Below are positions 3,083 through 62,418 of a stretch of DNA of 64,000 bases, piece by piece. Origin of the DNA: an uncultured Bacteroidia bacterium. Lineage in GTDB: Bacteria > Bacteroidota > Bacteroidia > Bacteroidales > UBA932. The stretch is taken from positions 1-64,000 of the forward strand of contig CACWOZ010000001.1 of assembly GCA_902762655.1 (NCBI GenBank), written 5' to 3'. Below the pieces are notes generated by a model. It was not told the origin of the DNA. It worked only from the letters and a program-made list of their open reading frames with translations, and made no database searches. How positions within the stretch are numbered: the stretch's first letter is position 1; every line of letters starts with the position of its first letter. Made by a program: the position numbers and the translations under genes.

Positions 3083-4650
3083 TGGATTATTTGAAGATCA
3101 ATCCGGCCGACAATGTGGCCGTTGCGCTCCATCCCCTCCAGAAGGGGATGGCCGCTTTGGGCGTGACCCTGTTGCAGGACGTGCCCCAGGGGCATAAATT
3201 CACCCTCACCGACCTTTCTGCCGGTGATAACGTCATCAAATACGGCTATCCCATAGGTCACGTGACCAAGGATGCTCCTGCGGGAACCTGGATCGACCAT
3301 TCATGCATAAAGACGAATCTGTCCGGTTTGCTGGAATACAAGTACGAACCGGTGCCGGAAGTTGCGGAGTCTTTGTTCCCGAAAACCGGCGAAAACGGGA
3401 ACGAAAGGGTCGAAAATGGGGCGGTTGTTCCCGAAAACCCGCAAAAACGGGAACGGGGTACGGCGACCTTCAAGGGTTTCCGCCGTGCGGACGGTCAGGT
3501 GGGTATACGCAACCAGATATGGGTCATTCCCACGGTCGGTTGCGTGAACGGCATCTGCGAGCAGATCGTGAGCCGCTTCAAGGCGGAGATCTGTCATTCT
3601 GAGCGCAGCGAAGAATCTTCCGTCGACGCCATCGTCACCTTCCCTCACAACTACGGCTGCTCACAGCTGGGCGGCGACCACGAAAACACCCGCAAGGTTC
3701 TCTCCGATATGGTGCACCATCCTAATGCGGGCGGAGTGCTGGTCGTGAGTCTCGGTTGCGAGAACAACCAGCTGGACGCCTTCCGTGAACTCGTCGGCCC
3801 CGTTGACGAGAAACGCGTGAAGATGTTCGCCTGCCAGAAGGTTGAGGATGAAATCGAATACGGCCTGCAGTGCCTGCGCGAGATTTATGCAGCTTGCAAG
3901 GACGATGTCCGCGAGGATATCCCCGTGAGCGAACTCCGCGTGGGTCTGAAGTGTGGGGGATCGGACGGCCTTTCCGGCATCACCGCGAACCCTCTTCTCG
4001 GAGTCTTCTCCGACTGGCTTGTGGTGCAGGGAGGAACTACTGTTCTGACCGAAGTGCCCGAGATGTTCGGTGCCGAGACCATCCTTATGAACCGCTGCCA
4101 GAACAAGTCGACCTTCGACGAAACCGTACATCTCATCAACGATTTCAAGGACTACTTCATGAAGCAGGGGATGCCGGTCTACGAGAATCCTTCGCCCGGC
4201 AACAAGGCCGGAGGTATCTCCACACTGGAAGAGAAGTCGCTTGGCTGCACGCAGAAATGCGGCTCCTCAATTGTCCGCGGCGTGCTCAAATATGCCGACC
4301 GCCTGCAGAAGAAAGGGCTCAATCTGCTGAGCGCTCCCGGCAACGACCTTGTGGCCTCCACCGCCCTGGGTGCATCCGGCTGCCAGATGGTGCTCTTCAC
4401 CACCGGCCGCGGCACTCCCTTCGGGAGTTTCGTGCCCACGATGAAGATTTCCACCAATTCGCAGATTGCCGCACTAAAGCCTACCTGGATCGACTTCAAT
4501 GCAGGAGTGCTGGTTGAGGATACCACTATGGATGAACTCGCGGTTAAATTCCGCGACTACGTGCTTGCCGTTGCATCCGGAGAACCCGTAAACAACGAAA
4601 AGCACGGAAGGCGCGAAATCGCCATCTTCAAGACGGGCGTCACGCTTTAG
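3082..4650 (+). CDS. uxaA: Altronate dehydratase UxaA, carrying repeat-derived insertions
   Basis: Dehydrates D-altronate to 2-keto-3-deoxygluconate. An N-terminal SAF-like domain (about 1-100) is followed by the Fe-dependent dehydratase domain with FPHNYGCSQLG, SLGCENNQLD, KCGGSDGLSG and LGASGCQMVLFTTGRGTP. At 522 residues it is longer than most UxaA (about 490-500). The excess lies in two places: the linker after the SAF domain, where residues of about 95-130 are encoded by two copies of a 28-bp repeat, and a CHSERSEESS segment at about 171-180 encoded by a dispersed 27-bp repeat. All catalytic-domain signatures remain, so it is probably functional. It converges on lacI with a 4-bp stop overlap. 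Confidence 0.93.
   Translation: MDYLKINPADNVAVALHPLQKGMAALGVTLLQDVPQGHKFTLTDLSAGDNVIKYGYPIGHVTKDAPAGTWIDHSCIKTNLSGLLEYKYEPVPEVAESLFPKTGENGNERVENGAVVPENPQKRERGTATFKGFRRADGQVGIRNQIWVIPTVGCVNGICEQIVSRFKAEICHSERSEESSVDAIVTFPHNYGCSQLGGDHENTRKVLSDMVHHPNAGGVLVVSLGCENNQLDAFRELVGPVDEKRVKMFACQKVEDEIEYGLQCLREIYAACKDDVREDIPVSELRVGLKCGGSDGLSGITANPLLGVFSDWLVVQGGTTVLTEVPEMFGAETILMNRCQNKSTFDETVHLINDFKDYFMKQGMPVYENPSPGNKAGGISTLEEKSLGCTQKCGSSIVRGVLKYADRLQKKGLNLLSAPGNDLVASTALGASGCQMVLFTTGRGTPFGSFVPTMKISTNSQIAALKPTWIDFNAGVLVEDTTMDELAVKFRDYVLAVASGEPVNNEKHGRREIAIFKTGVTL
3375..3454 (+). repeat. Paired 28-bp repeat inside uxaA
   Basis: Two direct copies (3375-3402 and 3427-3454) differ at 2 of 28 positions. Each begins GTTCCCG and ends CGGGAAC, so each is a small inverted repeat. 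They lie in frame in the inter-domain linker of uxaA and encode FPKTGENGNE and VPENPQKRERG. Confidence 0.88.
3592..3618 (+). repeat. Dispersed TGTCATTCTGAG...GAAGAATCT repeat in uxaA
   Basis: A 27-bp element starting TGTCATTCTGAG and ending GCGAAGAATCT, with a GAGCGCAGC core, lies in frame in uxaA. The same end motifs recur in inverse orientation at 41247-41282 between two genes. Elements with these ends are familiar as dispersed repeats in bacterial genomes. Confidence 0.75.
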
Positions 4651-14429: not shown

Positions 14430-14523
14430 GAGTATCCGTATGCAAAAACGCCTGTTTTGCATACGGATACTCGTTTTTATCGCCACTTGTATGCAAAACC
14501 GGCCATTTTGCATACAAGTGGCG
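14430..14523. repeat. Twin perfect hairpins sharing a TATGCAAAA core
   Basis: Hairpin 1 (14430-14472) and hairpin 2 (14481-14523) each have perfect 18-bp arms and a 7-nt loop. They are 43 nt long with 8 nt between. The inner nine bases of the arms, TATGCAAAA, are shared; the outer nine differ (GAGTATCCG and CGCCACTTG) but are compensated on the other arm. This looks like a paired REP/BIME-type element rather than two terminators, although it may also end the transporter transcript. Confidence 0.85.
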
Positions 14524-14586
14524 AAAGACAGGCCATAGTTGACCACGTTCCAAGGACAATCCTGGTGAATCAATTGAAAAAATACA

Positions 14587-24617: not shown

Positions 24618-25520
24618 ATGCCGAAATTCCGAAAACCGCTTCCGGCCGAGTTGCCGGAGCCGGAAATAATAGATGTACGGGCGCTGGCAGCGGAACTTAA
24701 AGCCGGCCGGCTGGATTTGGTCTGTGTGCTGGGGCCGACTGCATCTGGAAAGACCAAATATGCCGTTAGTCTAGCGCGCGAATTTGCCGCATCAGGGCTG
24801 ACGGCAGAAATCATCTCCGCGGACTCTCGTCAGGTATACCGCGGGATGGACATAGGCACGGGAAAGGATCTTTCTGAATATCAGGAGATTCCTTATCATC
24901 TTATAGATATATGCGAGCCGGGCGGCGGATACAATGTCTATCAGTTCAAGGAAGACTTCGGCCGCGCGTTCGAGGAAATCCGCGCCCGCGGGTGCGTGCC
25001 GATACTCTGCGGCGGCACCGGCCTGTATATCAATGCGGTGACCGCCGGATACGACTTCCGTTCTTGCAAGCCGCTCAGTATGCCGGCCGGAGAGTTTGAT
25101 GGTGGCCCGTCCGTTTCGGGCAGTAGCCGTCACGGAAGTTTTTTGAGTGAGGTTGTGCGTGGCGGTAGCGGAGTGACGGCTACTGCCCGAACGGAAGAGA
25201 TACCGCGCACCTACTTTATCGGCACGCTGGTCAGCCGGGAGGTGCGGAATGCCAGGATTGACGCGCGGCTGAAGGCGCGCCTGGAGGAGGGGATGATCGA
25301 GGAAATCCGCGGCCTGCTTGCGGGGGGCGTACCTGCCGAAACCCTTATTGGTTACGGCCTTGAATATAAATTCGTTACACTCTTCCTGCAAGGGCAGTTG
25401 ACAGAGCAGGAACTATTCGAACAACTATCCACAGCCATCCATCAGTTCGCGAAGCGCCAGATGACCTGGTTCCGCGGCATGGAGCGCAGCGGGGTTATAA
25501 TTCATTGGGTAGAGGTTTAA
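24618..25520 (+). CDS. miaA: tRNA dimethylallyltransferase MiaA with a replaced central segment
   Basis: The family transfers dimethylallyl to A37 of tRNAs reading UNN codons. The P-loop [14 protein letters not shown] (about 40-53), [18 protein letters not shown] and [11 protein letters not shown] are normal, as is the C-terminus [15 protein letters not shown]...[16 protein letters not shown], which matches the Bacteroidota type. Between GYDF and [16 protein letters not shown] (about 155-200) the expected helical domain (ELR..LE, N/TDxxKRxIRAIEIE) is missing. About 50 residues encoded by a large inverted repeat stand in its place. 300 residues from ATG 24618. Activity is doubtful; another miaA may exist elsewhere. 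Confidence 0.85.
25112..25193 (+). repeat. Inverted repeat inside miaA
   Basis: Arms 25112-25133 and 25173-25193 are complementary over 21 bp (CGGGCAGTAGCCGTCAC core) with one extra T in the left arm and a 39-nt spacer. It is in frame and lies where the helical domain of MiaA should be encoded. Confidence 0.9.
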
Positions 25521-26479: not shown

Positions 26480-26580
26480 TTTTTGCCGGGCAGCTATCTT
26501 ACTGATAGTCAATGCTTTGCTAGAAACAAATCGGTGAAAAATGCCGATTTGTTTCCAGGATATCGCTGTGAATCAATTAG
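26480..26580 (-). repeat. REP copy, left of the RAYT region
   Basis: About 101 bp containing GCCGGGCAGCTATCTT and an internal hairpin AAACAAATCGG/CCGATTTGTTT. It is an inverted copy of 28686-28787, with about 80% identity by eye. It ends on the stop codon of the threonine-aldolase-like gene. Confidence 0.88.
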
Positions 26581-27605
26581 TTAAGTGCCCGGCTTAATTC
26601 TTCAATAGCTTCCTCCCTCGTAGCCCAGGATGTAGCAAAGCGGGTGACGGCTCTACCATCCGGGAGCCTCTCCCAAATTTCGAATGCAACTTTTCCCTCC
26701 AATGCGGCCATCTGAGAGGAGGTCAGGATGGGAAACTGCTGGTTGGTTGGCGAATCAATGAAAAATGGTATTCCTTTTTCAGCGAAGAGCGCTTTGACTC
26801 TCATAGCCATCCGGATGGCATTATCGCTGATTCTCAAGTAAAGACCGTTCGTAAAAAGTGTATCGAACTGAATCCCCAGCAACCTGCCTTTTGCCAGAAG
26901 GGCACCGTGCATCTTGATATGAGTAAAAAAGTGGGCGGGAGCATTTCCTCGGGGGAAGACCACCGCCTCACCGCAAAGGGCTCCGACTTTCGTACCACCG
27001 ATGTAGAACACGTCACAGAGACGGGCGATATCCTTCAGGGAGACATCTGCCGCAGGGCTGGCCAGGCCATATCCAAGACGGGCGCCGTCGATGAACAAAG
27101 GCAGGCCGTACTGTTTGCATATCGCACCGATTTCTTCAAGTTCGGCACGCGAATAGATGGTCCCGTATTCCGTTGGGAATGAGATATATACCATACCCGG
27201 CTGAACCATATGCGGATGAGTTTCATCGGCATAGAAAGCCTCCAGCCATGCCTTCAGATCTGCGGCATCCATCTTCCCCTGATGCTGAGGCAAAGTAAGG
27301 ACCTTGTGCCCGCAGAATTCAATGGCTCCTGCCTCATGGACTGCAATATGTCCTGTCTGCACAGCAAGAACGCCTTGATATCCCTTCAGCAAACCGTCGA
27401 TGACAGTACTGTTGGTCTGCGTCCCTCCAACGAGGAAAAAGATGTCGGCGTCAGGGCAGCCTATGGCTTCGCGGATGCGGGTTTTGGCAGATGCGCAGAA
27501 GGAATCTTCCCCATAACCGGGCTCCTGCTGGAAATTGGTCTCGGCCAGGCGCTTAAGGATTTCGGGGTGCGCGCCTTCGGTATAATCACAAGTAAAGGAA
27601 TACAT
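26577..27605 (-). CDS. ltaE: Low-specificity threonine aldolase-like PLP enzyme
   Basis: PLP-dependent cleavage of threonine/allo-threonine to glycine and acetaldehyde is the family reaction. 342 residues; N-terminal SFTCDYTEGAHPEILKRL, the GGTQTN motif (about 60-65), LFIDGARLGYGLASP (about 168-182) and the PLP-lysine region VFYIGGTKVGALCGEAV (about 197-213). ATG 27605 is preferred: a TATTTTTG box (27614-27621) lies 8 nt upstream, so the in-frame extension would precede the transcript. The stop codon lies in the edge of a REP copy. Confidence 0.88.
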   Translation of the reverse strand: MYSFTCDYTEGAHPEILKRLAETNFQQEPGYGEDSFCASAKTRIREAIGCPDADIFFLVGGTQTNSTVIDGLLKGYQGVLAVQTGHIAVHEAGAIEFCGHKVLTLPQHQGKMDAADLKAWLEAFYADETHPHMVQPGMVYISFPTEYGTIYSRAELEEIGAICKQYGLPLFIDGARLGYGLASPAADVSLKDIARLCDVFYIGGTKVGALCGEAVVFPRGNAPAHFFTHIKMHGALLAKGRLLGIQFDTLFTNGLYLRISDNAIRMAMRVKALFAEKGIPFFIDSPTNQQFPILTSSQMAALEGKVAFEIWERLPDGRAVTRFATSWATREEAIEELSRALN

Positions 27606-27621: not shown

Positions 27622-27761
27622 GCAAATAGCGCGGACACTGCAAATTTCGTCACATAATGCGAAACCGGAAATATAGCCAAACCGCTGATAGGCAAGCATT
27701 TAGATATCGCAATAAATACGCATCGAAAACAATTCGCCACTTTTTATGTTTCTGATTGTTT

Positions 27762-28685
27762 ATGGATGAGTCCTTTCCTATATTGGGGCAAAAAATGACT
27801 GCACATCATCTATTTATGAAGGGGAAGAACTGGTGGGGGCTTTTCTATCGCATTGAAGACTGCATAATGTACTTCACCACATTCAGCGTATTCGCCAGAA
27901 GGATGGAAATGGTCTTTATCGCATTTTCCATAATGTTCAACCACACACACGCCACAACTCTGGACGAAACAAGGCAACGGATCACGCTATTTCAAAGACA
28001 GGTGGGAGTCTCGACTGCGCATACCTACAATAGAGAATACGGCAGAGAAGGACAGCTTTGGCATCATTCCTTTGGCTTTTCCGTCAAACACGGCATAAAA
28101 AGGATACTGGGCAATATTGCGTATGTGTTCAATAACTGTGTTGCCGGAAAAATGAATCGGAGGGCTATGGATAACAGATGGACATTGCTGGCGTATTACA
28201 ACAACAGCCATCCATTTTCCGAGCCCATAATTAAGGAGAAATGTAGCCGTAAAATGGAACGGGCAATGAAACTGGTGGATATATCCTACGATAATGATGA
28301 ACCATTGAATTATGCTACACAGCGAAGATTGTTCTCCGGTTTGAACAAAAAAGAAAAGGCACAGATTATAGATTATTTGATTTCAAGGTATAATTTCCTT
28401 GACTATCGGGCTTTGATCAGCCTTTATGGAAGCTTTGAAACGGCAATCATCGCTATAGATTCCAATGCTGGTGGCGAATACGATCTGAAGGATGATACCG
28501 GCGATCATTCTTGTTATATGAAAATGATTGCCTTGACACACCAAATGTTCCCGAATCTCAGGAAACTGAATGTAGAAATGCTAAGCGATGAACAGAAGAA
28601 TCAACTTGCAACTGCTTTCAGAGCTATTCTGATGGCAAAAGAAGAGAATATTCGGAAATTTCTGCATTTCAGTCCGGGCGCATAA
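27762..28685 (+). CDS. REP-associated tyrosine transposase (Y1 / IS200-like, RAYT family)
   Basis: 307 residues from ATG 27762. The Y1 HUH nuclease fold is indicated by the His-x-His pair in MFNHTHATTL (His61, His63). A candidate catalytic Tyr lies in AHTYNREYGREGQLWHHSF (Tyr89 or Tyr93), and ILGNIAYVFNNCVAGKM corresponds to the 'RYIHLNPV' segment of RAYTs. A C-terminal helical domain (about 160-307) has no known motif. RAYTs are single-domain transposases that process REP hairpins. Its stop abuts a REP copy, and an inverted copy lies 2.2 kb to the left, as expected of this family. Ordinary IS200/IS605 is less likely since no element ends are seen. Confidence 0.82.
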   Translation: MDESFPILGQKMTAHHLFMKGKNWWGLFYRIEDCIMYFTTFSVFARRMEMVFIAFSIMFNHTHATTLDETRQRITLFQRQVGVSTAHTYNREYGREGQLWHHSFGFSVKHGIKRILGNIAYVFNNCVAGKMNRRAMDNRWTLLAYYNNSHPFSEPIIKEKCSRKMERAMKLVDISYDNDEPLNYATQRRLFSGLNKKEKAQIIDYLISRYNFLDYRALISLYGSFETAIIAIDSNAGGEYDLKDDTGDHSCYMKMIALTHQMFPNLRKLNVEMLSDEQKNQLATAFRAILMAKEENIRKFLHFSPGA

Positions 28686-28787
28686 CCGATTGATTTACAG
28701 CAATATACTGAAAACAAATCGGCGAAATTGACCGATTTGTTTTTAGTAAAGTGTTGATTGTCAGCAAGATAGCTGTCCGGCAAAAAG
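28686..28787 (+). repeat. REP copy, right of the RAYT
   Basis: Starts right after the RAYT stop and carries the hairpin AAACAAATCGG/CCGATTTGTTT. The other end reads, on the minus strand, GCCGGACAGCTATCTT. It is inverted relative to 26480-26580 and also separates the RAYT from the convergent metK. Confidence 0.88.
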
Positions 28788-28794: not shown

Positions 28795-30087
28795 CTACAG
28801 CCCGAAGGCGTGCCGGAGAGGCTCTACGCTGTCAAGTTTCTCCCAGCCGAAGAACTGGATTCCGTTTTTCACGTAGGGTTCGCGACCGAAGTGACCGTAA
28901 GCGGCGGTGGGGGCGTAGATGGGATTCTTGAGACCGAAGCGTTTGATGATGGCAGCTGGACGAAGGTCGAAGAGACTGCGGAGTTTGAATGCTATCTCGG
29001 CATCGCTGCAAACACCTGTGCCATACGAATTAACGTACACGCTTACAGGTTCTGCCACGCCGATGGCATAGGCGAGTTGCACGAGGCATTCGGAGGCTAC
29101 GCCGGCTGCTACCAGGTTCTTTGCCAGATAGCGGGCGGCATAGGCGGCGCTGCGGTCCACCTTCGAGGGATCTTTCCCGGAGAAGGCTCCGCCGCCGTGG
29201 GCTCCGCGTCCGCCGTAAGTATCCACGATTATCTTGCGTCCGGTGAGGCCGGTGTCTCCTGCTGGGCCGCCGATAACGAATTTGCCGGTGGGGTTCACGT
29301 GAAGGATGAAATGGTCGTCGAAGAGGGCGGCGAGCTCCGCCGGCAGGGAGGAGATGAGACGTGGGAGGACAATCTCCCGCACATCCTTTTCGATGCGTGA
29401 GTGCATGGCTTCATCGGTGTCGAATTCGTCGTGCTGGGTACTCAGGACAATGGTATGGACGCGTACGGGTTTGTTGGTCGTGCCGTCAAACTCTACGGAG
29501 AACTGTGCTTTGGCGTCGGGGCGCAGATACGGCATTTCTTCCTCTCCGCGACGGGCGAAGGGCCCATTCGTGTCCCGCAAGGGGAGCCCGGTACGGGCAT
29601 CGCCCGTCCGAAGGCTCTCGCCAGCGTGCCGAATATCTGCCAGCACCTGAAGCAGCCTGTGCGACAGATACAGCGCCAGAGGCATATAATCCGGGGTGTT
29701 CTTGCAGGCATAGCCGAACATCATGCCCTGGTCACCAGCTCCCTGCGACATTTCATCATCACGCACAACACCGCGGTGGATGTCAGCACTTTGTTCGTGG
29801 ATTGTGGAGATTATGCCGCATGAAGATGCATCGAACCCGTATTCCGCCTTGGTGTAACCTATGCGGGAGATGGTGTCGCGCACGACCTTATGTATATCCA
29901 CATATGCGTTCTCGGACGCTACCTCGCCTCCGACAACCACGAGGCCTGCCGTGCAGAAGGTCTCACAAGCCACTTTTGCCTCCGGATCCTGGCGGAGGAA
30001 CTCATCGAGAATAGAATCTGAAATCTGGTCGGCAACCTTGTCAGGATGCCCTTCCGAGACGCTCTCGGACGTAAATAGATAGTTCAT
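28795..30087 (-). CDS. metK: S-adenosylmethionine synthetase with an inserted loop
   Basis: Makes S-adenosylmethionine from methionine and ATP. Signatures are intact: [19 protein letters not shown] (about 6-24), [12 protein letters not shown] (about 116-127), [15 protein letters not shown] (about 299-313). Between LADIRHAGE and [12 protein letters not shown] the usual close spacing (ADIRREGKEMTYLRP in Bacteroides) is broken by about 26 extra residues rich in Arg, Gly and Pro, encoded by a palindromic repeat. The insertion is on a surface-type connection after the nucleotide-binding helix, so activity is probably kept. Confidence 0.95.
29536..29620 (-). repeat. Palindromic element inside metK
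   Basis: About 80 bp in frame with several inverted segments: ACGGGC-gat-GCCCGT and the outer arms GACGGGCGA...TCGCCCGTC. It corresponds exactly to the extra peptide of MetK. Confidence 0.75.
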
Positions 30088-30209
30088 TTTAGCATTTTTT
30101 TAAATTACCGGGGTTGCAAGCAGTCAAATCTTTCCCCATTGCGGCGCAAAGATACGAAAAATTGTATTAACTTCGCAGCGGAAAAAACTTATCTACAATA
30201 ACAAAGTTT

Positions 30210-36277: not shown

Positions 36278-38962
36278 ATGAAATTCAGATCAATTCTGGC
36301 CATTGCGGCCCTCGCCGTATTATCGTTTACGGCTTGCGAAGAAACAGAGAATCTTGGCGAGGCCAAGGTTTCTGTTACTCCTTCGGAAGTATCATTAGAT
36401 GCTACAGGAGAAAAGTCCGAGGTCGTTGCTCTCACTGCGACCCGTGACTGGCACATAGAAAACACCCCTGAATGGGTGGTGGTAAATCCCTCTTCCGGGA
36501 AAGCTTCCACCAGTGAACAGACTGTAACCATTTCAGTCGACCCCAACAAAGGCAATGACCGTGAGGACGATATCATCTTCACTATCGGTCTTGCAAAGGC
36601 TTCTTTACATGTGAAGCAGGCTGGAGAGGCCGGTGAACTTAAGAAAGGCAGCGGCACCCTCGAGGATCCGTACAGCGTGGCAGGTGTAATCGAATACTGC
36701 CAGAGCCTTGGTGCAGATGTACAGAGCCCGGACAATGTCTACATCCAGGGCACCATCGCTTCTGTGTCCACCACATATGAAGCCAGCGGTACTTATGGCA
36801 ATGCCACGTTCTACATTGTAGATAACGAGGGGGATACCGACCAGTTCTATGTATTCCAGACCCTCTATCTCGGCAACCGTAAATGGAAGTCCGGCGACAC
36901 CGATGTGAAGGCCGGCGACAAGGTTATCATCTGTGGCAAGGTCGTAAACTACAAGGGCAATACCCCCGAGACAGTCAGCAAGGGCGGCAGCTTTGTCTAC
37001 TCCCTAAATGGTGTGACCGAGGGTACCGTTGAACCCGAGGATCCCAGCAAGGTGGAGCAGATTACCTGTGCACAGTTTATCGAGAAGGCCGATCCCAACA
37101 CCACCTATCGTCTTGTGGGCAAGGTAACATCTTCTGTCAATGCTACTTACTGTTCGTTCGACATGAACGACGGCACAGCAACGGTTGTTGTCTGGACCGT
37201 GAACAACAAGGACGAGTGGAAAGACAAGGTAAAGAAGGATGGCACTGTTACCGTGCGCGGCAAGTATCTCAAGTATGAGAAGGATGGCAACGTCAAGCAC
37301 GAGATGGTCGATGCCTATATTGAGAAGTTCGAAGAGGGTACCGTTGAACCCGAGGATCCCAGCAAAGTGGAGCAGATTACCTGCGCACAGTTTATCGAGA
37401 AGGCCGATCCCAATACCACCTATCGTCTTGTTGGCAAGGTGACCTCTTCTGTCAATACTACTTACTGTTCGTTCGATATGAACGACGGCACAGCAACGGT
37501 TGTTGTCTGGACCGTCAACAACAAGGATGAGTGGAAGGACAAAGTGAAAAAGGATGGCACCGTCACCGTACGCGGCAAGTATCTCAAGTATGAGAAGGAT
37601 GGCAACGTCAAGCACGAGATGGTGGATGCCTACATCGAGAAGTTCGAAGAAGGTCAGGGCGGCGGACAGGAGGAAGCCGTTACTGGAACTGTGTCCGAAA
37701 CGATTGTTGCAAAGGATGACGATAAAGTCGTGGCGAACGATGCAATCGTTGCCGCTATCTGCACGAAGGGTTTCATTGCAACCGATGGCAAGCAGAATGT
37801 TTATGTTTTCTTGAACAAGGCTCCTGAGGCAAAACTTGGCGACAAGGTAAAGATTGAGGCTACCAAGACAACATATTACGGTTTGCCGGAGTTCAAGGAT
37901 GCCACCATTACCGTTGTGAACAGCGGAAACAGCATCCCTCGCACCGAACTCAAGGATATCACTTCTTCCATCGACAGCTACGCTTCTTCCGATACCGATT
38001 TTCTGACCGCTACCGGAACACTTGACAAAAATACCAACGGTTATTATATCGTGAAGGTCGATGGCGCCACCAGGGCTGTTTCTCCGCAGTATCTTGACGC
38101 TTCTATTGATCCTTCCGCCTTGCTCAACCAGAAAGTGGCTATCACCGGATATTTCAATACAATCCACACCAAGAACAATTATGTTCAGGTGATTGCTACC
38201 GAAATCAAGGCAGCAGACCCCAATGCGAAGTATTGTACAGTAAGCACCAAGGCCATCAGTGCCAAGGCAAGCGATACCGAAGCAACGTTCACAATCAACG
38301 CCAACGCTGCCTGGACTGTTACCAGCGATAATTCCGCATTCACCGTGACCCCTGCTTCCGGTGATGCCAACGCTACTGTAAAAGTGACTTTTGCCGCCAA
38401 CGAGACCGATAAGGCCGTTGTCGCCAACCTCAAGGTCGTTTGCACAGATGCTAAAGTTGAAGAGACCGTAGTGCTCACTCAGGCTGCGAAATCTTCGACT
38501 CCTTCGGGAAAAGCGTTTGTGAAGGTAACCACCGCCCCCAATGATTGGTCTGGGACTTATCTGATTGTAAATGAGGATAATAAAGTTGCATTTGATGGGA
38601 AAGGGACTGCAGATGCTGCAAATCTGAATATTACCGTTGATATTACTGAAGGTTCCATCGCTGCTACTGACGCCGCCCTTGCATCGACAGTCACTGTTGA
38701 GACTATGAACGGAGGATATGCACTCAAAACTGCCAGCGGAAAATACCTCTCCGGTACAAAGGAAAAGAATGCTATCAATTTCGGAACAACTCAGGTATTG
38801 ATGACAATCAGCCTTGATGCCAGCGGGAATGCCGTAATCACCGACAGCGCTGCAGATACATGGATTCTCTATAACGCTGCTTCCGATCAGAAACGTTTCC
38901 GTTTCTACAAGAAATCGTCGACAGCTCCGAAGGCTGTGCAACTTTACAAGCTGTCTGAGTAG
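36278..38962 (+). CDS. Large surface lipoprotein with BACON domains and tandem OB-fold modules
   Basis: 894 residues; lipobox SFTAC (about 16-20). A BACON domain (about 30-115) is followed by an OB-like module (about 120-245) and two almost identical 105-residue OB-like modules (about 248-457; QITCAQFIEKADPNTTYRL...GKYLKYEKDGNVKHEM). Two further OB-like segments (about 460-640) precede a second BACON (about 645-735). A C-terminal domain, about 745-894 (DWSGTYLIVNEDNKVAFDGK...), is of the type found on secreted Bacteroidales nucleases. It is the first gene of the nuclease operon. Role as a nucleic-acid-binding surface protein is inferred. Confidence 0.78.
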   Translation: MKFRSILAIAALAVLSFTACEETENLGEAKVSVTPSEVSLDATGEKSEVVALTATRDWHIENTPEWVVVNPSSGKASTSEQTVTISVDPNKGNDREDDIIFTIGLAKASLHVKQAGEAGELKKGSGTLEDPYSVAGVIEYCQSLGADVQSPDNVYIQGTIASVSTTYEASGTYGNATFYIVDNEGDTDQFYVFQTLYLGNRKWKSGDTDVKAGDKVIICGKVVNYKGNTPETVSKGGSFVYSLNGVTEGTVEPEDPSKVEQITCAQFIEKADPNTTYRLVGKVTSSVNATYCSFDMNDGTATVVVWTVNNKDEWKDKVKKDGTVTVRGKYLKYEKDGNVKHEMVDAYIEKFEEGTVEPEDPSKVEQITCAQFIEKADPNTTYRLVGKVTSSVNTTYCSFDMNDGTATVVVWTVNNKDEWKDKVKKDGTVTVRGKYLKYEKDGNVKHEMVDAYIEKFEEGQGGGQEEAVTGTVSETIVAKDDDKVVANDAIVAAICTKGFIATDGKQNVYVFLNKAPEAKLGDKVKIEATKTTYYGLPEFKDATITVVNSGNSIPRTELKDITSSIDSYASSDTDFLTATGTLDKNTNGYYIVKVDGATRAVSPQYLDASIDPSALLNQKVAITGYFNTIHTKNNYVQVIATEIKAADPNAKYCTVSTKAISAKASDTEATFTINANAAWTVTSDNSAFTVTPASGDANATVKVTFAANETDKAVVANLKVVCTDAKVEETVVLTQAAKSSTPSGKAFVKVTTAPNDWSGTYLIVNEDNKVAFDGKGTADAANLNITVDITEGSIAATDAALASTVTVETMNGGYALKTASGKYLSGTKEKNAINFGTTQVLMTISLDASGNAVITDSAADTWILYNAASDQKRFRFYKKSSTAPKAVQLYKLSE
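37021..37650 (+). repeat. Tandem 315-bp coding duplication
   Basis: Units 37021-37335 and 37336-37650 encode the same 105-residue module; the proteins differ at about one position (SVNATY versus SVNTTY), while many third codon positions differ. Confidence 0.93.
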
Positions 38963-48264: not shown

Positions 48265-48290
48265 CCTGCGCTGATTATCAAGCACTTAAA

Positions 48291-48326
48291 GAAAACCGTC
48301 TGGTGCAAATGTACCAGACGGTTTTC
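48291..48326. terminator. Bidirectional terminator after gpmA
   Basis: GAAAACCGTCTGGT and ACCAGACGGTTTTC pair perfectly (14 bp) around an 8-nt loop; A- and T-tracts lie in the stem ends, so it can act in both directions. Confidence 0.88.
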
Positions 48327-48331
48327 AGTAA

Positions 48332-48570
48332 CTATCTGGTAGTCAGGAGGGTCAGGTGGCCGTTGGGTTCGAAGCGGAGTTCCTGCTCTCCGAGAACCAG
48401 CAGGGCCTCGCCGGCTTTGATGGGGTGCCGCTGATAGAGCCTTTGCCTTTCAGGGCCATTACAATATAGAAACTCCCCGGAACTGATGCCTGCGCGCTAA
48501 GGTCTACGCTGACGGGTTTGGTCAGATCATAGACATCCGTCGTGAAATACCGGCATTTTGCCACTTCTAC
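48332..48570 (-). pseudogene. C-terminal remnant of a second mannose-6-phosphate isomerase
   Basis: Reading leftwards from about 48570: VEVAKCRYFTTDVYDLTKP, VPGSFYIVMALKGKGSISGTP, then after a frameshift IKAGEALLVLGEQELRFEP...LTLLTTR and stop at 48332. This matches the end of the intact ManA (52416-53294: CPYFTTSVFELSETV, INAGEALLVMGENRL, LLTTHL) at roughly half the residues, so it is a diverged paralogue, not a recent copy. Its upstream part is missing and an Rhs tip begins at the break. Confidence 0.85.
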
Positions 48571-48580
48571 TCCGGCGTTC

Positions 48581-49426
48581 CTGCCGGGCTTCGGACTTAT
48601 CAACTGCAACGCCCGCCTCTATGACCCAGCCCTCGGCCGCTTCCTGATGCCCGACCCGCTCATTCAGGACCCTGCGAGCACCCAGAACTTCAACCGCTAC
48701 AGTTACTGCCTCAACAATCCGCTGAAGTATACCGATGAGAGTGGGGAGTATTTTATACTTGACTCTTTTATTGTTGGTTTATTAGGCGGTGGCTGGGAGA
48801 GAGCAAAAATAATGGCGGTTAATGATGCGAAAATATGGCTCGGACTCTTCAATGTTGACAAAAACGATAATCCCCTTCAAGCTGCATGGCACCTTTTCTT
48901 ACGTTTTACGTGGGAGTTGCCGCAAACTGTTGCAGGCTTATTTGTATCACACACATTTAATACATTGAGGTTATACGGTGGAACAGAATCTGTAGACTAT
49001 ATACACGGTGCAACGGTGCTTAGGACACGTAAAGACGGCTTCGGTGGAATAACTATAGGCAGTTTTATTAACGGTGATAGTGATATCAAAGCAGATGATA
49101 CTAATCCTTTATTTCAACACGAATTCGGGCATGTGTTACAAAGCCGGGAACATGGATTAATCTGGCCGTTTTCTTTTGGCATCCCAAGCATCATAAGTGC
49201 ATTTTCGAATTCTTACGAGGATCATAATAAGTTTTATACTGAGCAAGATGCCAATGCCAGAGCTCTGCGATATTTCTATAAAAACAATGAGGAATTCAGA
49301 GACGCAGATTTGTATGGAAAACTGGATGAAAAATGGCATTTTGATGACAATCCGATTAATGGATATAATCTAAAACTATCGTATAATGATGAATCTAATC
49401 AGTCGTCGCTTGACAATTTGATATAA
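48581..49426 (+). pseudogene. Orphan Rhs C-terminal tip 1 with a zincin-like domain
   Basis: Begins in mid-protein with the Rhs core end GFGLINCNARLYDPALGRFL...SYCLNNPLKYTDESGE (48581-48748). No ATG precedes it; an in-frame GTG at 48542 reads through the antisense of the manA remnant. The variable tip (about 225 residues, AT-rich) has a hydrophobic start and the metalloprotease-like pattern FQHEFGHVLQ with a later Glu in YTEQDANARALRYF. As a tip it would be delivered by a full-length Rhs protein after recombination. Likely silent as it stands; a lipoprotein gene (candidate immunity) follows. Confidence 0.75.
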
Positions 49427-49984: not shown

Positions 49985-50017
49985 AACCGCCCGAGCATCT
50001 TTGCCCGGGCGGTTTTT
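49985..50017 (+). terminator. Rho-independent terminator between the two Rhs cassettes
   Basis: AACCGCCCG pairs with CGGGCGGTT around a 12-nt loop and is followed by T5. It overlaps the left end of the second Rhs core. Confidence 0.9.
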
Positions 50018-50021
50018 ACCT

Positions 50022-50960
50022 GGCAACCACGGTTACACGGGCCACGAGCACCTGCCTGGCTTCGGGCTGATCAACTGCAACGCGCGTCTGTACGACCCCG
50101 CCCTTGGCCGCTTCCTGATGCCCGACCCGTTTATCCAGGACCCTGCGAGTACGCAGAACTTCAACCGATACAGCTACTGCCTCAATAATCCTCTGAAATA
50201 TACTGATGAGAGTGGGGAAAAGTTAATTATAAATATCTCTCGAAACGGTATAAAAATAGGGTGGAATTTTATAGAATTAGGTATACCCGTAGGTTTTGGA
50301 TTTACGTATGATTGGTCTGAACCTAAAGGTAAAATAGGTGCTTTTATAAAGTTTGGAATTCACGAAGAATTCAGTATTATGGGAGTCGATCTGGTACAGA
50401 CAATTGATCTTACTGCAAAGGTGTGTGCTACGCATTCATTCAAAGATGGATCAAATACTATCGAAGGAGAGCTTAAAGCTAAATATGGAAGAGGGAATCT
50501 AACGGCTGAGGCTGGTTTAAAAGGGGGAATACAATTTGATAAAGACTGGAAAGTAAAGAAATATATGGGGTCTGCAACTATTACGGGCGGCCTTTCTGAT
50601 TCTTATGTAAACGGGAAAGTGTATGCTTCCTATAATACATCCTATGACATAGGTAGCGATGCATGGGATAACTCTTTCAGCATTGGCCTTAAGGTAAAAA
50701 AAACATACTATGATGGTAGCCCGTTTGAGTACGACGGGATGGCAGATTTTAAGTATACTTATAATATAAATAAAAAACAAGGTGCGTTTGATTTTAATCT
50801 CTCGCTGGGAAATACAGAAGAGGATCGAAGCGTCTTCGATTCTGAGCACTTCAAGTTGATAGAGAAGTATTCTTCAAGAGTTCAAGATGCACAAAAAAGA
50901 GGAAAAAAAGCAACAGAAGAGTATTATAACTATAAAAAGAGAACGAAAAGAGTTTTATAA
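50022..50960 (+). pseudogene. Orphan Rhs C-terminal tip 2 with unknown beta-rich domain
   Basis: The core starts slightly earlier than in tip 1 (GNHGYTGHEHLPGFGLINCN) and the next 54 residues are identical to tip 1 except for one Leu/Phe. No ATG precedes; the only upstream start is a TTG in the terminator. The tip (about 245 residues) is AT-rich, beta-strand-like early (GWNFIELGIPVGFGFTYDW, GRGNLTAEAGLKGGIQFD) and ends in a Lys-rich helix. No toxin family is recognised. Likely a silent recombination donor. Confidence 0.72.
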
Positions 50961-52415: not shown

Positions 52416-53294
52416 CTACAGATGTGTCGTTAGCAACTTGACCTTTCCGCAGGATGGCGCCAGGGTGAGTCTGTTTTCTCCCATCACGAGCAAAGCCTCG
52501 CCGGCGTTGATCTGAACGGCGGTGCCGTCGGAACCGGTCACGGATCCGGAACCTTCCAGACCCATCACGATGTAGAAGTTGCCCGGAACTGCCTGGAGGC
52601 CGGAGAGATCCTTTTCGACGGTTTCGCTGAGCTCGAATACGGAAGTGGTAAAATACGGGCAGCTTACGACCTCCATCTCTTCGTTCTCCCTGCGCTCGTA
52701 TTCGGTCTTGTATGAGGGATAGACCTTGTAGTCTATCACATCCTTCGCCTCCTGCGTGTGCAACTGGCGCGGCTTGCCGTCGAGCCCGGGGCGGTTGTAG
52801 TCGAAGATGCGGTAGGTGATGTCGGAGGTCTCCTGGATCTCTGCCAGATAGCATCCTCCGCAAATGGCATGGATGCGCCCTGCGGGCAGGAAGAAAACAT
52901 CTCCCGGAGCAACTTTATGGTCTGCCAGCACCTCGGTGATGCGGCCTTCTTCCACCAGACGAACGTAATCATCCTTCGTAATCTCTTTGCTCAGGCCTGC
53001 GAGCAGATGCGCGCCCGGAGCCGTATCTATCATATACCACATCTCCGTCTTGCCTTTGCAGCCATGGCGCTGCTGCGCTATCTCATCATTGGGGTGCACC
53101 TGGATGCTCAGGTCCTTCTTCGCATCTATGAATTTGATGAGCAGCGGGAACTCCCCACCGTATAGTTCGTTCAGCGTCTTGCCGTCGGCCGGCCCGCCGA
53201 CCACCTTGGTCTCATTGCCCATCACGCCGGACAGCACCCAGTTCTCGGTGCCCCACACCAGCGTCTTCAGTATCGCTTGGAATTTGTAGATCAT
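52416..53294 (-). CDS. manA: Mannose-6-phosphate isomerase, class I
   Basis: Zinc enzyme converting mannose-6-phosphate to fructose-6-phosphate. 292 residues in the short class I form: LLIKFIDAKKDLSIQVHPND (about 50-69) with metal-ligand Gln/His, KTEMWYMIDTAPGAHLLAGL, and FLPAGRIHAICGG (about 141-153). The C-terminal cupin ends INAGEALLVMGENRL. ATG 53294 begins directly at a pair of hairpin repeats. 4 bp upstream of the decayed permease gene. Confidence 0.94.
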   Translation of the reverse strand: MIYKFQAILKTLVWGTENWVLSGVMGNETKVVGGPADGKTLNELYGGEFPLLIKFIDAKKDLSIQVHPNDEIAQQRHGCKGKTEMWYMIDTAPGAHLLAGLSKEITKDDYVRLVEEGRITEVLADHKVAPGDVFFLPAGRIHAICGGCYLAEIQETSDITYRIFDYNRPGLDGKPRQLHTQEAKDVIDYKVYPSYKTEYERRENEEMEVVSCPYFTTSVFELSETVEKDLSGLQAVPGNFYIVMGLEGSGSVTGSDGTAVQINAGEALLVMGENRLTLAPSCGKVKLLTTHL

Positions 53295-57489: not shown

Positions 57490-59013
57490 TCAGAACAGAA
57501 TATCTTTCTTGTATCGCGTAGTCAGAAGGACGGTTCGTGCGATGAGGTGTGCGAAATAAGCTGCGAGCAGCAGATGGATGGCGGTGGCAGGGGCTATGCC
57601 GGAATCTGCTTCGGGCAGGAGCCGGGGGAGAACCGCAAGTCCCGCAAACCAAACCGCAAAGAATGCGGTGACCGCCCATATCATGGAATCTCGGATGGAC
57701 CCGGACGCCGTTGCACCTATGTAAACGCCGTCCCAGGTGAAAGCGGCGCATCCTATTAGCGGCATCACTGACAGCCAGGGGAGGAACTGCCGGCATGCCC
57801 CCACCACGGTCGGGTCGTCGGTCATCAACCGCAGCATCGGCAGCCCGGCCAACAGGTAGAGGGCAATCCAGATGCCTGCGACTCCGAAGCTCCAACGGAA
57901 TGTGCCTCCGACCGCCTTCCGCAGCATCTCCGGATTCCTCTCCCCGATAAAGCGTCCGGTCAAAGCCTCGCCGGCATACGCGAATCCGTCGGTGAAATAG
58001 GAGAAAATCATCAGCAGATTCATCATTATGTTGGCGCAGGCAAGCATTGTCTCCCCGTAGCGGCCGGCGATTATGGTATACCCGAGGTAGATGCCGGTCA
58101 TACACAGGGAGCGTACGAAGAGATCGGTGTTTAGATGGAAGAAATCGCGGACCTTGTGTTCGTTTTGGGCTATTTTTGAGCACGACTCGCTGTTTTTCGA
58201 GGGGGTTGTGCCCGAAATGGGCTGTTTTTGAGCACGGGGGATGGCGATTTCAGGTCGGATTCTGTAACGGAAGCGGCAGATTGCCAGCGCCAGGATGAAC
58301 CCTGTCCACTGCGCGATGACTGTGCCGAGGGCGATCCCCGGGAAGCCCAGGCCCTGCCAGCTGCCGACCCCTAGGGTGAGGATGATGCTGGCGGCGATGT
58401 TGACAAGATTGACGGTGAGGTCTACCAGCATCGAACTACGGCTGTCCTGCATGCCTATGAACCAGCCTTTCAGGGCCATCAGGCTCAGGGTTGCGGGCGC
58501 TGCCCAGATGCGGATGAGGATGTATTGTGCAGCGAGTATCGCGACTCCGGGGGTGACGTCGCTGAACAACAGACTCAGTTTGGACAGCGGCCATCCAAGC
58601 ACCAGTAGTATCGCCGATATGCCCAGTGCCAGTTTCAGGGCCCGCCGCAGAATGGGTATGGCCTGACCGCGCTCATCAGAGCCCACGGCGGAGACCGTGT
58701 CCGAAGGATCTGGAGGTCGAGAGCCGCGGGGTACATTAGGGGCAGCGCCCCTAATAGACAATAGGCTTTTGGCTTGTCCAAAAGCCTGAGCGGTTAAACC
58801 GCCGGTTGACGCGCGGAGAAAGCCGAAGTTCCAATATATGACATTGAGCACCATGGCCCCGACCGAAATGCCGCCGATAAACTCGGCGCTGGAGCCGGCC
58901 GCCGAATGCAGATGCCCTGCCACTGCGGTATCCACCAGCCCTACCAGCGGAACCGTGATGTTCGCCAGTATGCTCGGCAGCGAAAGCCGGAGTATTTCCC
59001 TATTTATTCCCAC
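57490..59013 (-). CDS. MATE-family efflux transporter with two repeat-derived insertions
   Basis: 507 residues, above the roughly 440-450 of relatives (DinF-like branch). TM1 SLPSILANITVPLVGLVDTAV and 11 further segments are recognisable. Insertion 1 after FLRASTGGLTAQAFGQAKS contains SIRGAAPNVPRG and about 30 extra residues. Insertion 2 (RAQKQPISGTTPSKNSESC...) lies in a loop before VRSLCMTGIYLGY. Both are encoded by palindromic or paired repeats. The GTG start overlaps guaA by 10 bp. Substrate unknown; likely Na+ or H+ driven export. Confidence 0.86.
   Translation of the reverse strand: MGINREILRLSLPSILANITVPLVGLVDTAVAGHLHSAAGSSAEFIGGISVGAMVLNVIYWNFGFLRASTGGLTAQAFGQAKSLLSIRGAAPNVPRGSRPPDPSDTVSAVGSDERGQAIPILRRALKLALGISAILLVLGWPLSKLSLLFSDVTPGVAILAAQYILIRIWAAPATLSLMALKGWFIGMQDSRSSMLVDLTVNLVNIAASIILTLGVGSWQGLGFPGIALGTVIAQWTGFILALAICRFRYRIRPEIAIPRAQKQPISGTTPSKNSESCSKIAQNEHKVRDFFHLNTDLFVRSLCMTGIYLGYTIIAGRYGETMLACANIMMNLLMIFSYFTDGFAYAGEALTGRFIGERNPEMLRKAVGGTFRWSFGVAGIWIALYLLAGLPMLRLMTDDPTVVGACRQFLPWLSVMPLIGCAAFTWDGVYIGATASGSIRDSMIWAVTAFFAVWFAGLAVLPRLLPEADSGIAPATAIHLLLAAYFAHLIARTVLLTTRYKKDILF
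58152..58236 (-). repeat. Paired 33-bp direct repeat inside the MATE gene
   Basis: Copies 58152-58184 and 58204-58236 match at 25 of 33 positions and share GGGCT(A/G)TTTTTGAGCACG. In frame in a loop region. Confidence 0.82.
58735..58787 (-). repeat. Two small perfect hairpins inside the MATE gene
   Basis: ATTAGGGGC-agc-GCCCCTAAT (58735-58755, perfect 9-bp arms) and AGGCTTTTGG-cttgt-CCAAAAGCCT (58763-58787, perfect 10-bp arms). The first is the same family, same strand and frame, as 61657-61677 in rsgA. Confidence 0.88.
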
Positions 59014-60817: not shown

Positions 60818-60821
60818 AGTA

Positions 60822-60872: not shown

Positions 60873-60901
60873 AGGCACCCCCAGATATTGTGTAGGTGCC
60901 T
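60873..60901 (-). terminator. Weak hairpin after dtd
   Basis: AGGCACC and GGTGCCT pair around 15 nt in the 103-bp gap between dtd and the TSCPD promoter. No U-run of note. Confidence 0.35.
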
Positions 60902-60920
60902 GCTATGGCAAGATGCCTGG

Positions 60921-61373
60921 CTAATTCTTCTGTTTCGAGTCTAAGCATATTGTCACCGGGCCGTCGTTGACCAAGGCGACTTTCATATCGGCTCCGAATT
61001 CGCCGGTGCCGACGGGTTTGCCGATCGCGGCGGACATCCTGCGGCAGAACTCCTCATACATCGGGATGGCTTTTTCGTGGCCGGCTGCCTCGATGTAGGA
61101 CGGACGGTTGCCTTTCTTGGTGGATGCCATCAGAGTGAACTGGCTTACCACCAGCACTTCGCCCGCAATATCCAGCACACTACGGTTCATTACGCCGTTT
61201 TCATCGTCGAAGATGCGAAGACCCGCGGTTTTCTTTACCAGATAATCAATATCAGTTATGTCGTCCTCGTGGCCCACGCCAAGCAGTACCAGCAGTCCAG
61301 GCCCGATCTGCGAACGGACAATCCCGTCAATCGTGACGGAAGCGGAAGAAACTCTTTGAATGACGACCCGCAT
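60921..61373 (-). CDS. dtd: D-aminoacyl-tRNA deacylase
   Basis: Hydrolyses D-aminoacyl-tRNA. 150 residues from the ATG at 61373: MRVVIQRVSSASVTIDG start, EVLVVSQFTLMAST (SQFTL motif, about 74-87), NRPSY and the catalytic C-terminal VALVNDGPVTICLDS (GPVT motif). It is about 30 bp downstream of rsgA on the same strand. Confidence 0.96.
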   Translation of the reverse strand: MRVVIQRVSSASVTIDGIVRSQIGPGLLVLLGVGHEDDITDIDYLVKKTAGLRIFDDENGVMNRSVLDIAGEVLVVSQFTLMASTKKGNRPSYIEAAGHEKAIPMYEEFCRRMSAAIGKPVGTGEFGADMKVALVNDGPVTICLDSKQKN

Positions 61374-61401
61374 GACAGAAATACTATCGGAATTAGAAAC
61401 C

Positions 61402-62418
61402 CTATCTGAATTTGCCGTCTTCTTCAAGCATTCCAAGGTAGGAATTGTAGCGTTCGGCGCTGATCTGCCCTGCATCGACCGCGGCCTTAACGGCGCAGCC
61501 CGGTTCATGGGTATGGGTGCAGGGTACGAAACGGCACTCGTCAGCCACCCGCAGCATTTCCGGGAAGTATTTTGCGATTTCCTCCTTTTCCAGATCCACG
61601 AGCCCGAAACCGCGCAGGCCGGGGGAGTCAATCAGGTACCCCGCTGGCTCAGGCACATCAGGGGCAGAGCCACTGATAGGATACATTTCGTACAACGAAG
61701 TTGTATGTTTCCCCTGGAGATGGGCAAGGGAGATTTTGCCGATCTTGGGGTCCAGGGAGGGATCTATGGCCTTGATAAGAGAAGATTTGCCCACGCCGGA
61801 TTCGCCCGAAAACAAACTCAACTTGCCGCCGCAGGCCTCGCGCAAAGAATCAATACCCTCGCCTGTCTTGCAGGAGGTCTCTATCACCCTGTATCCCGCG
61901 CCTTCGTATATCCTGTGAAACTCCGCAAGCGCCTCCGGGGCTTCGTCGCGGTAAAGATCTACTTTGTTCAGGGCAATTACAACAGGTATCTTGTAAACTT
62001 CGCAAGTGACCAGGATACGGTCCAGGAAGGGGAGCTTGATCTCCGGGAAGAAGAGACTGACTGCTATTACCGCCTGGTCGAGATTGGCCGCGATTATGTG
62101 GGACTGGCGGCTTAGATTTGTAGATTTGCGTATCACATAATTCCGCCGCGGCAGAATCTCAGTAATTACAGCGGACGGAATGGCCCCAGTGGAGCATTTC
62201 CCCGTACATGGTTGCGAAGCAACGCGGAGCAGGGGCCCTTTTTCATCCGCTGTGATATATGAAACCCTGTCGCCTACTGCAATGGGATTGGTGGCGGAGG
62301 ATTTTTGCAGGCGCACCTTCCCTCGCAGCACCGCGGGAAATGGCTCCCACCTCGGGAGCTCGCTCAGCAGGTAGTGGCTGCCCGCATTCTTTATCACCGT
62401 CGCAATCCTCTCTTCCAT
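61402..62418 (-). CDS. rsgA: Ribosome small-subunit GTPase RsgA with two inserted segments
   Basis: Circularly permuted GTPase for 30S maturation. 338 residues: OB-fold (about 1-95), G-domain with NKVDLYRDE (G4), FSGESGVGKSSLIKAI (P-loop, about 205-220) and LIDSPGLRGFGL (G3). The zinc finger CRFVPCTHTHEPGCAV follows. Insertions: about 25 residues in the OB-fold (KGPLLRVASQPCTGKC...) encoded by an 86-bp palindrome, and ISGSAPDVPEP between the G2 loop and G3. The core motifs are intact. Confidence 0.95.
   Translation of the reverse strand: MEERIATVIKNAGSHYLLSELPRWEPFPAVLRGKVRLQKSSATNPIAVGDRVSYITADEKGPLLRVASQPCTGKCSTGAIPSAVITEILPRRNYVIRKSTNLSRQSHIIAANLDQAVIAVSLFFPEIKLPFLDRILVTCEVYKIPVVIALNKVDLYRDEAPEALAEFHRIYEGAGYRVIETSCKTGEGIDSLREACGGKLSLFSGESGVGKSSLIKAIDPSLDPKIGKISLAHLQGKHTTSLYEMYPISGSAPDVPEPAGYLIDSPGLRGFGLVDLEKEEIAKYFPEMLRVADECRFVPCTHTHEPGCAVKAAVDAGQISAERYNSYLGMLEEDGKFR
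61657..61677 (-). repeat. Small hairpin inside rsgA, shared with the MATE gene
   Basis: ATCAGGGGC-aga-GCCACTGAT. With flanks it matches the MATE-gene copy (about 58730-58757) at about 23 of 28 positions, in the same orientation and frame, giving ISGSAPDVP versus IRGAAPNVP. Confidence 0.85.
62168..62253 (-). repeat. Long palindromic element in the rsgA OB-fold
   Basis: Outer arms ACAGCGGA/TCCGCTGT, inner GGCCCC/GGGGCC and a central GTTGC-gaa-GCAAC stem: three nested or adjacent inverted repeats over 86 bp, in frame. Confidence 0.8.

What the first reader, a model, noticed from the sequence alone, without database searches (positions are those of the whole stretch)
3375..62253. Many short palindromic repeats placed in frame inside conserved genes
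At least seven separate insertions in five conserved genes (uxaA x2, miaA, metK, MATE x2, rsgA x2) coincide exactly with extra or replaced peptide segments. Each is built of palindromes or paired repeats, of several distinct families. Most leave all catalytic motifs intact and keep the frame. This looks like ongoing spread of REP-like DNA through coding sequence, tolerated as protein loops, and is a possible source of new peptide segments.
Basis: partly seen in the sequence, partly recalled or inferred. Interest (0 to 1): 0.85.

Follow-up and report, generated by a model that had tools for sequence, protein, structure and literature searches.

The report
Mobile palindromes living inside bacterial genes
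In a rumen bacterium and its relatives, several families of short, apparently mobile hairpin DNA sit in frame inside loops of everyday enzymes, and three of the families were found almost only inside genes, which gives a natural test of how parasitic DNA can add new pieces to proteins.

Summary
All eight in-gene elements are present and in frame, with related DNA elsewhere in the genome (for MATE2 and rsgA1 only a short shared module). They are of several kinds. uxaA1 and MATE1 are REP-type twin hairpins (spacing 52 nt); the uxaA1 family flanks a transposase gene (RAYT) elsewhere in the genome. uxaA2 resembles CGTC/TGTC-type REPs. metK, miaA and rsgA2 belong to families without a known transposase, F2, F3 and F1, with 21, 6 and 9 copies in this genome. 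All 36 copies lie in long reading frames, 35 with a Pfam match. Cores are constant while stem arms differ between copies yet stay complementary, most clearly in F1 (about 78 nt). Empty sites in relatives (FolC, 29 of 29 read) show insertion, and one loop can carry different families in different genomes (IleS, MetG). The phenomenon is known in kind (Rickettsia palindromic elements, intragenic REPs). Apparently new are the bias to genes, the constant core with variable complementary arms, and the scale. Cautions: distant F1-like copies in two relatives are partly outside long frames, and half of the twin hairpins also lie in long frames. What moves F1-F3 is unknown.

The parts
3371..3456 (+). 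uxaA insert 1: twin hairpin (two ~31-nt hairpins 52 nt apart, stem GTTCCCG/CGGGAAC), RAYT/REP type, adds about 24-26 aa
   Evidence: RAYT at G000:C5:112356-113216 flanked by the same twin hairpins
3591..3620 (+). uxaA insert 2: TGTCATTCTGAGCGCAGCGAAGAATCT repeat (peptide CHSERSEES), CGTC/TGTC-REP-like
   Evidence: 13 hits in 1.68 Mb of held sequence; CHSERSEES or CHSERGEES also in IleS of G054 and MetG of G044 and G054
25112..25194 (+). miaA insert, family F3: conserved core with complementary arms (19 nt exact, ~22 nt with one bulge)
   Evidence: 6 copies in the genome
29530..29640 (-). metK insert, family F2
   Evidence: 21 copies in the genome
58145..58240 (-). MATE insert 1: diverged twin hairpin of the GTTCC group (stem GTGCTC/GGGCAC), spacing 52 nt
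58700..58815 (-). MATE insert 2: palindromic module CTATTAGGGGCGCTGCCCCTAATGTACCCC and flanks (peptide SIRGAAPNVPRGS)
61649..61679 (-). rsgA insert 1: diverged copy of the MATE2 module (peptide ISGSAPDVPE)
   Evidence: clearer copies in L032 and L033
62175..62251 (-). rsgA insert 2, family F1 (38-nt core, ~20-nt arms)
   Evidence: shared with L031 and L044
3082..4650 (+). uxaA, host gene
   Evidence: PF20629 and PF04295
24519..25520 (+). miaA, host gene (start codon uncertain)
   Evidence: PF01715
28795..30087 (-). metK, host gene
57490..59013 (-). MATE transporter, host gene
   Evidence: PF01554
61402..62418 (-). rsgA, host gene
   Evidence: PF03193; model
27756..28685 (+). RAYT-like Y1 transposase gene inside the window (NHTH in place of a canonical HuH motif)
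26485..26593 (.). left hairpin of the window RAYT (core GAAACAAATCGG..CCGATTTGTTTC at 26523-26555), about 1.2 kb from the gene
28674..28781 (.). right hairpin of the window RAYT (core 28711-28743), 80% like the left one in inverse orientation
14430..14524 (.). intergenic twin hairpin of the TATGCAAAA family; RAYT flanked by that family on contig C6
53305..53399 (.). twin hairpin (ACCTTCCCC stem, spacing 51) upstream of the start codon of the gene at 52416-53294

Best explanation
Several families of small non-autonomous hairpin elements have spread through this genome and genus and are kept where they do least harm: in frame, in loops, linkers and tails of proteins. uxaA1 and MATE1 are RAYT/REP elements: a Y1 (HuH-type) transposase is thought to cut and rejoin single-stranded hairpins, and these are copies that landed in genes (RAYT flanked by the uxaA1 family shown; catalysis inferred). 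F1, F2 and F3 are further palindromic families, moved in trans by an unidentified enzyme (inferred). F1 suits life in genes: about 78 nt (26 codons) and almost free of stop codons in all six frames, although real insertions gain 16 to 29 aa because host residues are often lost as well. The arms change from copy to copy but stay Watson-Crick complementary; the likely cause is DNA-level, arm-to-arm templated copying when the hairpin forms in single-stranded DNA (inferred). Insertions that break the frame or hit buried segments are lost by selection (inferred), so the same tolerant loops are filled again and again.
For: RAYT link: 8 RAYT-like genes in the genome; hairpins of one gene-specific family lie on both sides, within ~1.3 kb, of 7 of them. 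The uxaA1 family lies on both sides of the C5 RAYT. Insertion: empty sites in relatives. Patchy amplification, our own genome counted in: F1 in 8 of 41 genus genomes, in no other of 149 genomes drawn from the order; F2 in 2 of 41, with 21 copies here; F3 in 2 of 41. In genes: 36 of 36 F1-F3 copies here lie in stop-to-stop frames of at least 290 aa (for F2, the central part of the element), 35 with a Pfam match. Core and arms: in 12 of 15 G019 copies core identity 1.00, arm identity 0.52, within-copy complementarity 0.97. DNA level: 640 Watson-Crick, 6 G-T, 34 other pairs in 34 copies. Same loop, different families: IleS, MetG. Loop.
Against: No enzyme was found beside F1-F3; one RAYT (C20) has its hairpin on one side only. 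83% of random 78-nt stretches lie in frames of 280 aa or more, so the in-gene share alone is a modest excess, and 6 of 12 twin hairpins also lie in frames of 289 aa or more. Of 7 distant F1-like hits in G006, G020 and G049, two have no frame above 120 aa across them and three only 124-175 aa, so gene-boundness may not hold for F1 at large. Openness: F1 and F2 cores alone do not clearly beat shuffles (7-49% and 13-16% of shuffles as open), an intergenic RAYT hairpin is open in 5 frames too, F3 in only 3. F2 arms are less regular: longest complementary run 8 nt or less in 10 of 21 copies. Core constancy could reflect selection on, or conversion of, the core. No expression or mobility data; genomes are MAGs.
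Confidence: 0.72

Rival explanations
1. All the families, F1-F3 included, are moved by the RAYTs already present; F1-F3 are simply unusual REPs of those enzymes.
For: The genome has 8 RAYT-like genes; hairpin shape fits; 6 of 12 twin hairpins also lie in long frames; RAYT subclass 2.6, mostly Bacteroidetes, has atypical flanking structures (PMC6006769, passages).
Against: No F1-F3 hairpin was seen among the flanking hairpins of the 8 RAYTs; F1-F3 lack the 51-52-nt twin layout.
Confidence: 0.25
2. The arms are made anew at each insertion as an inverted copy of the target's flank, so the hairpin is partly host DNA.
For: In FolC one arm reads LAAG, much as the host does at that place; arms differ between copies with identical cores.
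Against: In RsmH (+29 aa) and prephenate dehydrogenase (+26 aa) the net gain equals about the whole hairpin, so both arms are extra, though the relatives compared are only 61-65% identical; arms keep a weak consensus out to position 20.
Confidence: 0.15
3. The inserts are selected as RNA or protein features (mRNA structure, ribosome bypass, useful peptides) rather than tolerated mobile DNA.
For: Pairs co-vary; several F3 copies encode a similar peptide, (H/R)GS(F/Y)LSxxxRGGSG or close to it.
Against: G-T pairs are 6 of 40 non-Watson-Crick pairs, no excess over chance; host proteins are unrelated; F1 is read in at least four frames; frame and openness are kept, which bypass would not need.
Confidence: 0.1
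4. Ordinary variable loops that happen to look palindromic, or assembly artefacts.
For: Several sites are naturally variable (63-105 aa in the aligned DnaG stretch; MATE loops).
Against: Dispersed copies with near-identical cores, covariation above shuffles, shared sites in independent MAGs.
Confidence: 0.03

Closest known systems
Rickettsia palindromic elements (RPE; Ogata 2000, 2002, known here only through passages of the review PMC10969869)
   Same: Palindromic elements of several families inserted in frame in unrelated genes, predicted compatible with protein structure
   Different: RPEs are described there as ~150 bp, ten families, nearly half in ORFs; here F1 is ~78 nt, all 36 F1-F3 copies found in this genome are in long frames, and arms vary around a constant core. 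No sequence comparison with RPEs was made
REP/REPIN elements with RAYT (TnpA-REP) transposases
   Same: Hairpin families flank their own Y1 transposase gene and are dispersed; uxaA1 fits, MATE1 as a diverged member
   Different: Two hairpins in the same orientation, 51-52 nt apart; a GTAG/GTGG foot was not looked for; the RAYTs are diverged, two lacking a canonical HuH
CGTC/TGTC-tagged REPs (Di Nocera 2013, PMC3733652)
   Same: uxaA2 begins TGTC; CGTC repeats are reported from Bacteroidetes, and RPE-4 and RPE-6 are CGTC elements (passages)
   Different: Membership not tested against the published consensus
Intragenic GTAG/CGTC REPs (PMC3733652, section 15 read)
   Same: REPs inside ORFs, many in DNA synthesis and repair genes, also tRNA genes; two Xanthomonas recB genes hit at about the same site
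   Different: Those REPs are mostly intergenic in their genomes; no intact intergenic F1-F3 copy was seen in this genome

Membership tests
REP/RAYT system (uxaA1, MATE1) | Cognate RAYT gene flanked by the same hairpins | tested here: met
   uxaA1 family flanks the C5 RAYT on both sides; MATE1 only as a diverged member of that group
REP/RAYT system (uxaA1, MATE1) | HuH and Y1 transposase domain | tested here: met
   PF01797 found in 3 proteins, over the cut-off in 2; HuH in 6 of 8, including the C5 gene; NHTH in the window and C7 genes. Catalytic Tyr not verified
REP/RAYT system (uxaA1, MATE1) | 5' GTAG/GTGG tetranucleotide at the hairpin foot | not tested
   subclass 2.6 is reported to lack it (PMC6006769, passages)
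REP/RAYT system (F1, F2, F3) | Cognate RAYT flanked by the element | tested here: not met
   none of the 8 RAYT-like genes found in this genome, so F1-F3 are not filed as REPs
Rickettsia palindromic elements (F1, F2, F3) | Palindromic, multi-copy, in frame inside unrelated genes | tested here: met
Rickettsia palindromic elements (F1, F2, F3) | Sequence homology to RPE families | not tested
   no RPE sequences were fetched
CGTC/TGTC REP (uxaA2) | CGTC or TGTC tag, 8-9 bp stem, 4-5 nt loop, CCA tail | tested here: inconclusive
   begins TGTC; stem, loop and tail not measured against the published consensus

The most novel reading that the evidence does not exclude
F1-F3 are a class of mobile DNA specialised for living inside protein-coding genes: frame-neutral length, (F1, F2) free of stop codons in nearly every frame, practically absent from intergenic DNA of this genome, with a constant mobile core and stems rewritten in register by DNA-level arm-to-arm copying. 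(Lowered from 0.35 to 0.30 on checking: half of the twin hairpins also lie in long frames, distant F1-like copies partly do not, and core openness alone is not above shuffles.)
Probability: 0.3. Interest if true: 0.88.

Novelty: new variant of a known kind. Interest (0 to 1): 0.72.

Why it matters
It offers an abundant, partly recent and comparable set of in-frame insertions in housekeeping enzymes (IleS, MetK, MurB, DnaG, DnaX, MutL and others), with empty sites in close relatives. That makes an old question testable: whether selfish palindromes are a steady source of new protein segments. The constant-core, variable-arm stems also point to a little-known way of keeping palindromes complementary.

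Tried and rejected
Target-derived arms were my first reading. Net gains in RsmH and prephenate dehydrogenase and the arm consensus argue against it; it stays as a rival. The DnaG copy was useless as an empty-site test because the linker is naturally variable. In one search I picked wrong frames for several UxaA relatives; mended, where G003 and G021 stayed unreadable at site 1. In one search my DnaG motif gave one false match, so I aligned instead. My notes contain errors: they say 14 MetK relatives have 32 aa (a recount gives 12), call one host GyrA (Pfam shows MetG), say all 8 RAYTs are flanked on both sides (7 are), and give 147 other genomes for (148). Literature: five searches returned RPE, REP, RAYT or unrelated papers and three returned nothing.

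Rows dropped: one search used 12 of 15 G019 F1 copies (left out: two with a 39-nt insert in the core, one with a variant core edge) and 7 of 9 own copies. One search used 34 copies (own 9, G019 15, G044 5, G053 3, G005 2 of 3); F1-like hits of G006, G020 and G049 were not used. One search used 21 F1 copies (G019 12, own 9). Two of the four shared sites were paired by eye from peptides, two from alignments. FolC, MetK and IleS were read only in loci returned for the best matches (29 of 59, 29 of 56 and 29 of 37 relatives with a match).
Full report
Setting. The window is the start of contig C1 (G000:C1:1-64000) of a 2.18-Mb, 36-contig genome, 96% complete. RsgA relatives are mostly rumen and gut Bacteroidales MAGs, one of them titled Candidatus Cryptobacteroides.

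Observation. All eight in-gene elements exist and the host proteins keep their Pfam domains. Seven have similar DNA elsewhere in a 464-kb sample of the genome; rsgA1 is a diverged copy of the MATE2 module. Twin hairpins form 12 clusters in 464 kb, two of them overlapping; in the 204 kb that were also shuffled there are 3 real clusters and none after shuffling.

RAYT/REP twin hairpins. The uxaA1 element matched 7 other places at E below 0.01. A profile of three Y1-transposase-like proteins found 8 RAYT-like genes. Hairpins of one gene-specific family lie on both sides of 7 of the 8, up to about 1.3 kb away; around the C20 gene only one such hairpin was seen, and a different one on the other side. 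The C5 gene lies between two GTTCC twin hairpins, the family of uxaA1. The C6 gene, with a split frame, has the family of the intergenic element at 14430. One RAYT lies in the window at 27756-28685, with its hairpins at 26485-26593 and 28674-28781. MATE1 aligns with the GTTCC group. The FolC frame holds a further twin hairpin. Of 12 twin hairpins examined, 6 lie in stop-to-stop frames of 289 aa or more (one of these upstream of the start codon, two not checked for being genes) and 6 do not.

Families F1, F2, F3. Models built from the rsgA2, metK and miaA groups found 9, 21 and 6 copies in this genome. Counting our own, they occur in 8, 2 and 2 of 41 genus genomes; F1 was found in none of 148 other genomes of an order-wide sample, under strict filters. 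All 36 copies here lie in frames of at least 290 aa, 35 with a Pfam match; the copy without one is C6:61545. For F2 only the central part of the element was required to lie in the frame. By Pfam, hosts include DnaG, DnaX, MutL, UvrD-type helicases, IleS, MetK, MurB, DapF, AroB, PurL-like and TruA-like proteins. Some copies sit at gene ends or borders: C12 at the RnfB/RnfC border, C11:43430 at a C-terminus, C6:57192 between two peptidase domains. Random 78-nt stretches lie in frames of 280 aa or more in 83% of cases, so 36 of 36 is a modest excess by itself; that frames stay open, and that no strong intergenic copy was seen, weighs more. Weak hits in the 464-kb sample (E 0.005 and above) were not followed up. 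Against this, of 7 distant F1-like hits shown for G006, G020 and G049, two have no frame above 120 aa across them, three have 124-175 aa and two have 479 aa or more.

Core and arms. In relative G019, 12 of 15 F1 copies compared share an identical 38-nt core, while their 20-nt left arms average 0.52 identity between copies and are 0.97 complementary within a copy. In our genome 7 of 9 copies give 0.94, 0.41 and 0.93. Over 34 copies the arms keep a weak consensus out to position 20, so the element is about 78 nt (26 codons). Pairs are 640 Watson-Crick, 6 G-T and 34 other. Covariation exceeds shuffles for F1 and F3 (six and three sequences). F2 arms are less regular: mean longest complementary run 9.1 within a copy against 5.5 between copies, and 8 or less in 10 of 21. 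At four sites shared by two lineages the cores are of lineage type; left arms are 0.50 to 0.75 identical, with 24 positions changed on both sides and 5 on one. F1 elements are open in 5.48 of 6 frames against 3.32 for shuffles (21 copies); but the F1 and F2 cores alone, though open in 6 of 6, are matched by 7-49% and 13-16% of shuffles, F3 is open in 3 of 6, and one intergenic RAYT hairpin is open in 5.

Empty sites and repeated hits. FolC: 57 aa here, 29-33 aa in 29 of 29 relatives read. IleS: 31 aa in 20 of 23 readable genomes; ours has F2 (57 aa), G019 has F1 with a 39-nt insert in its core (60 aa), G054 has CHSERSEES (32 aa); 7 loci were unreadable. UxaA site 1: of six readable relatives, G019 and G005 have another hairpin (single and twin), G004 and G011 a G-rich segment, G012 and G022 none; the hairpin and the G-rich segment were not tested as dispersed repeats. 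MetG loop: F1 in G019, CHSERGEES in G054, CHSERSEES in G044, a similar-looking repeat in G005 and G053, no recognised repeat in G016, G012, G023 or our own genome (host named). MetK and MiaA. Net gains at F1 sites range from 16 to 29 aa, so host residues are often lost too. In the AlphaFold model of RsgA, insert 1 is a loop with pLDDT below 50 at residues 66-78.

Comparison with print. In-frame palindromic elements are known from Rickettsia (review PMC10969869, passages), and intragenic REPs from several phyla (PMC3733652, section 15 read and passages seen). REPs inserted in frame inside RAYT genes, and Bacteroidetes-rich RAYT subclasses, are in PMC6006769 (passages). I found no paper on gene-bound hairpins with constant cores and variable arms in Bacteroidales, in a library without most subscription journals.

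Judgement. Shown: presence, repetition, empty sites, in-frame placement, RAYT pairing for the uxaA1 family, core/arm contrast. Inferred: the transposition mechanism, arm-to-arm copying, tolerance by selection, translation of the inserts.

Noticed in passing
30079-30143: SAM-II riboswitch upstream of metK.
   Followed up: no
37019-37633: 300-nt tandem duplication, 94% identical.
   Followed up: no
48580-48756 and 50051-50227: 177-nt repeat, 86% identical, in the ORFs 48542-49426 and 50001-50960.
   Followed up: no
48271-48346: Further hairpin with similar copies in L114 and L111.
   Followed up: no
L298:2001-2116 and L299:2001-2116 (G019): A 39-nt insert (13 codons) nested inside the F1 core at two sites, frame kept.
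   Followed up: partly
L034, L066, L077 (RsgA loop 1): Another long hairpin-like insert (peptide TPPSGVRPSGSPHPPFGTVPPLSNRGCYVPQGE in L034) with shared inner and differing outer arms; L035 has what looks like a shortened remnant.
   Followed up: partly
L020, L021 (UxaA site 1): A G-rich segment (GGNAPRPLGVQGD) shared by G004 and G011 at the uxaA1 site; not tested as a repeat.
   Followed up: no
F1/F2 hosts: Many hosts are replication, repair or tRNA-related genes (DnaG, DnaX, UvrA, UvrD-like, MutL, IleS, MetG, TruA-like), echoing the published REP pattern; not tested against gene content.
   Followed up: no
L379 (contig C28, 11.4 kb): One small contig holds a RAYT with its hairpins, an F2 copy, an F3 copy and a weak F3-like hit.
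   Followed up: no
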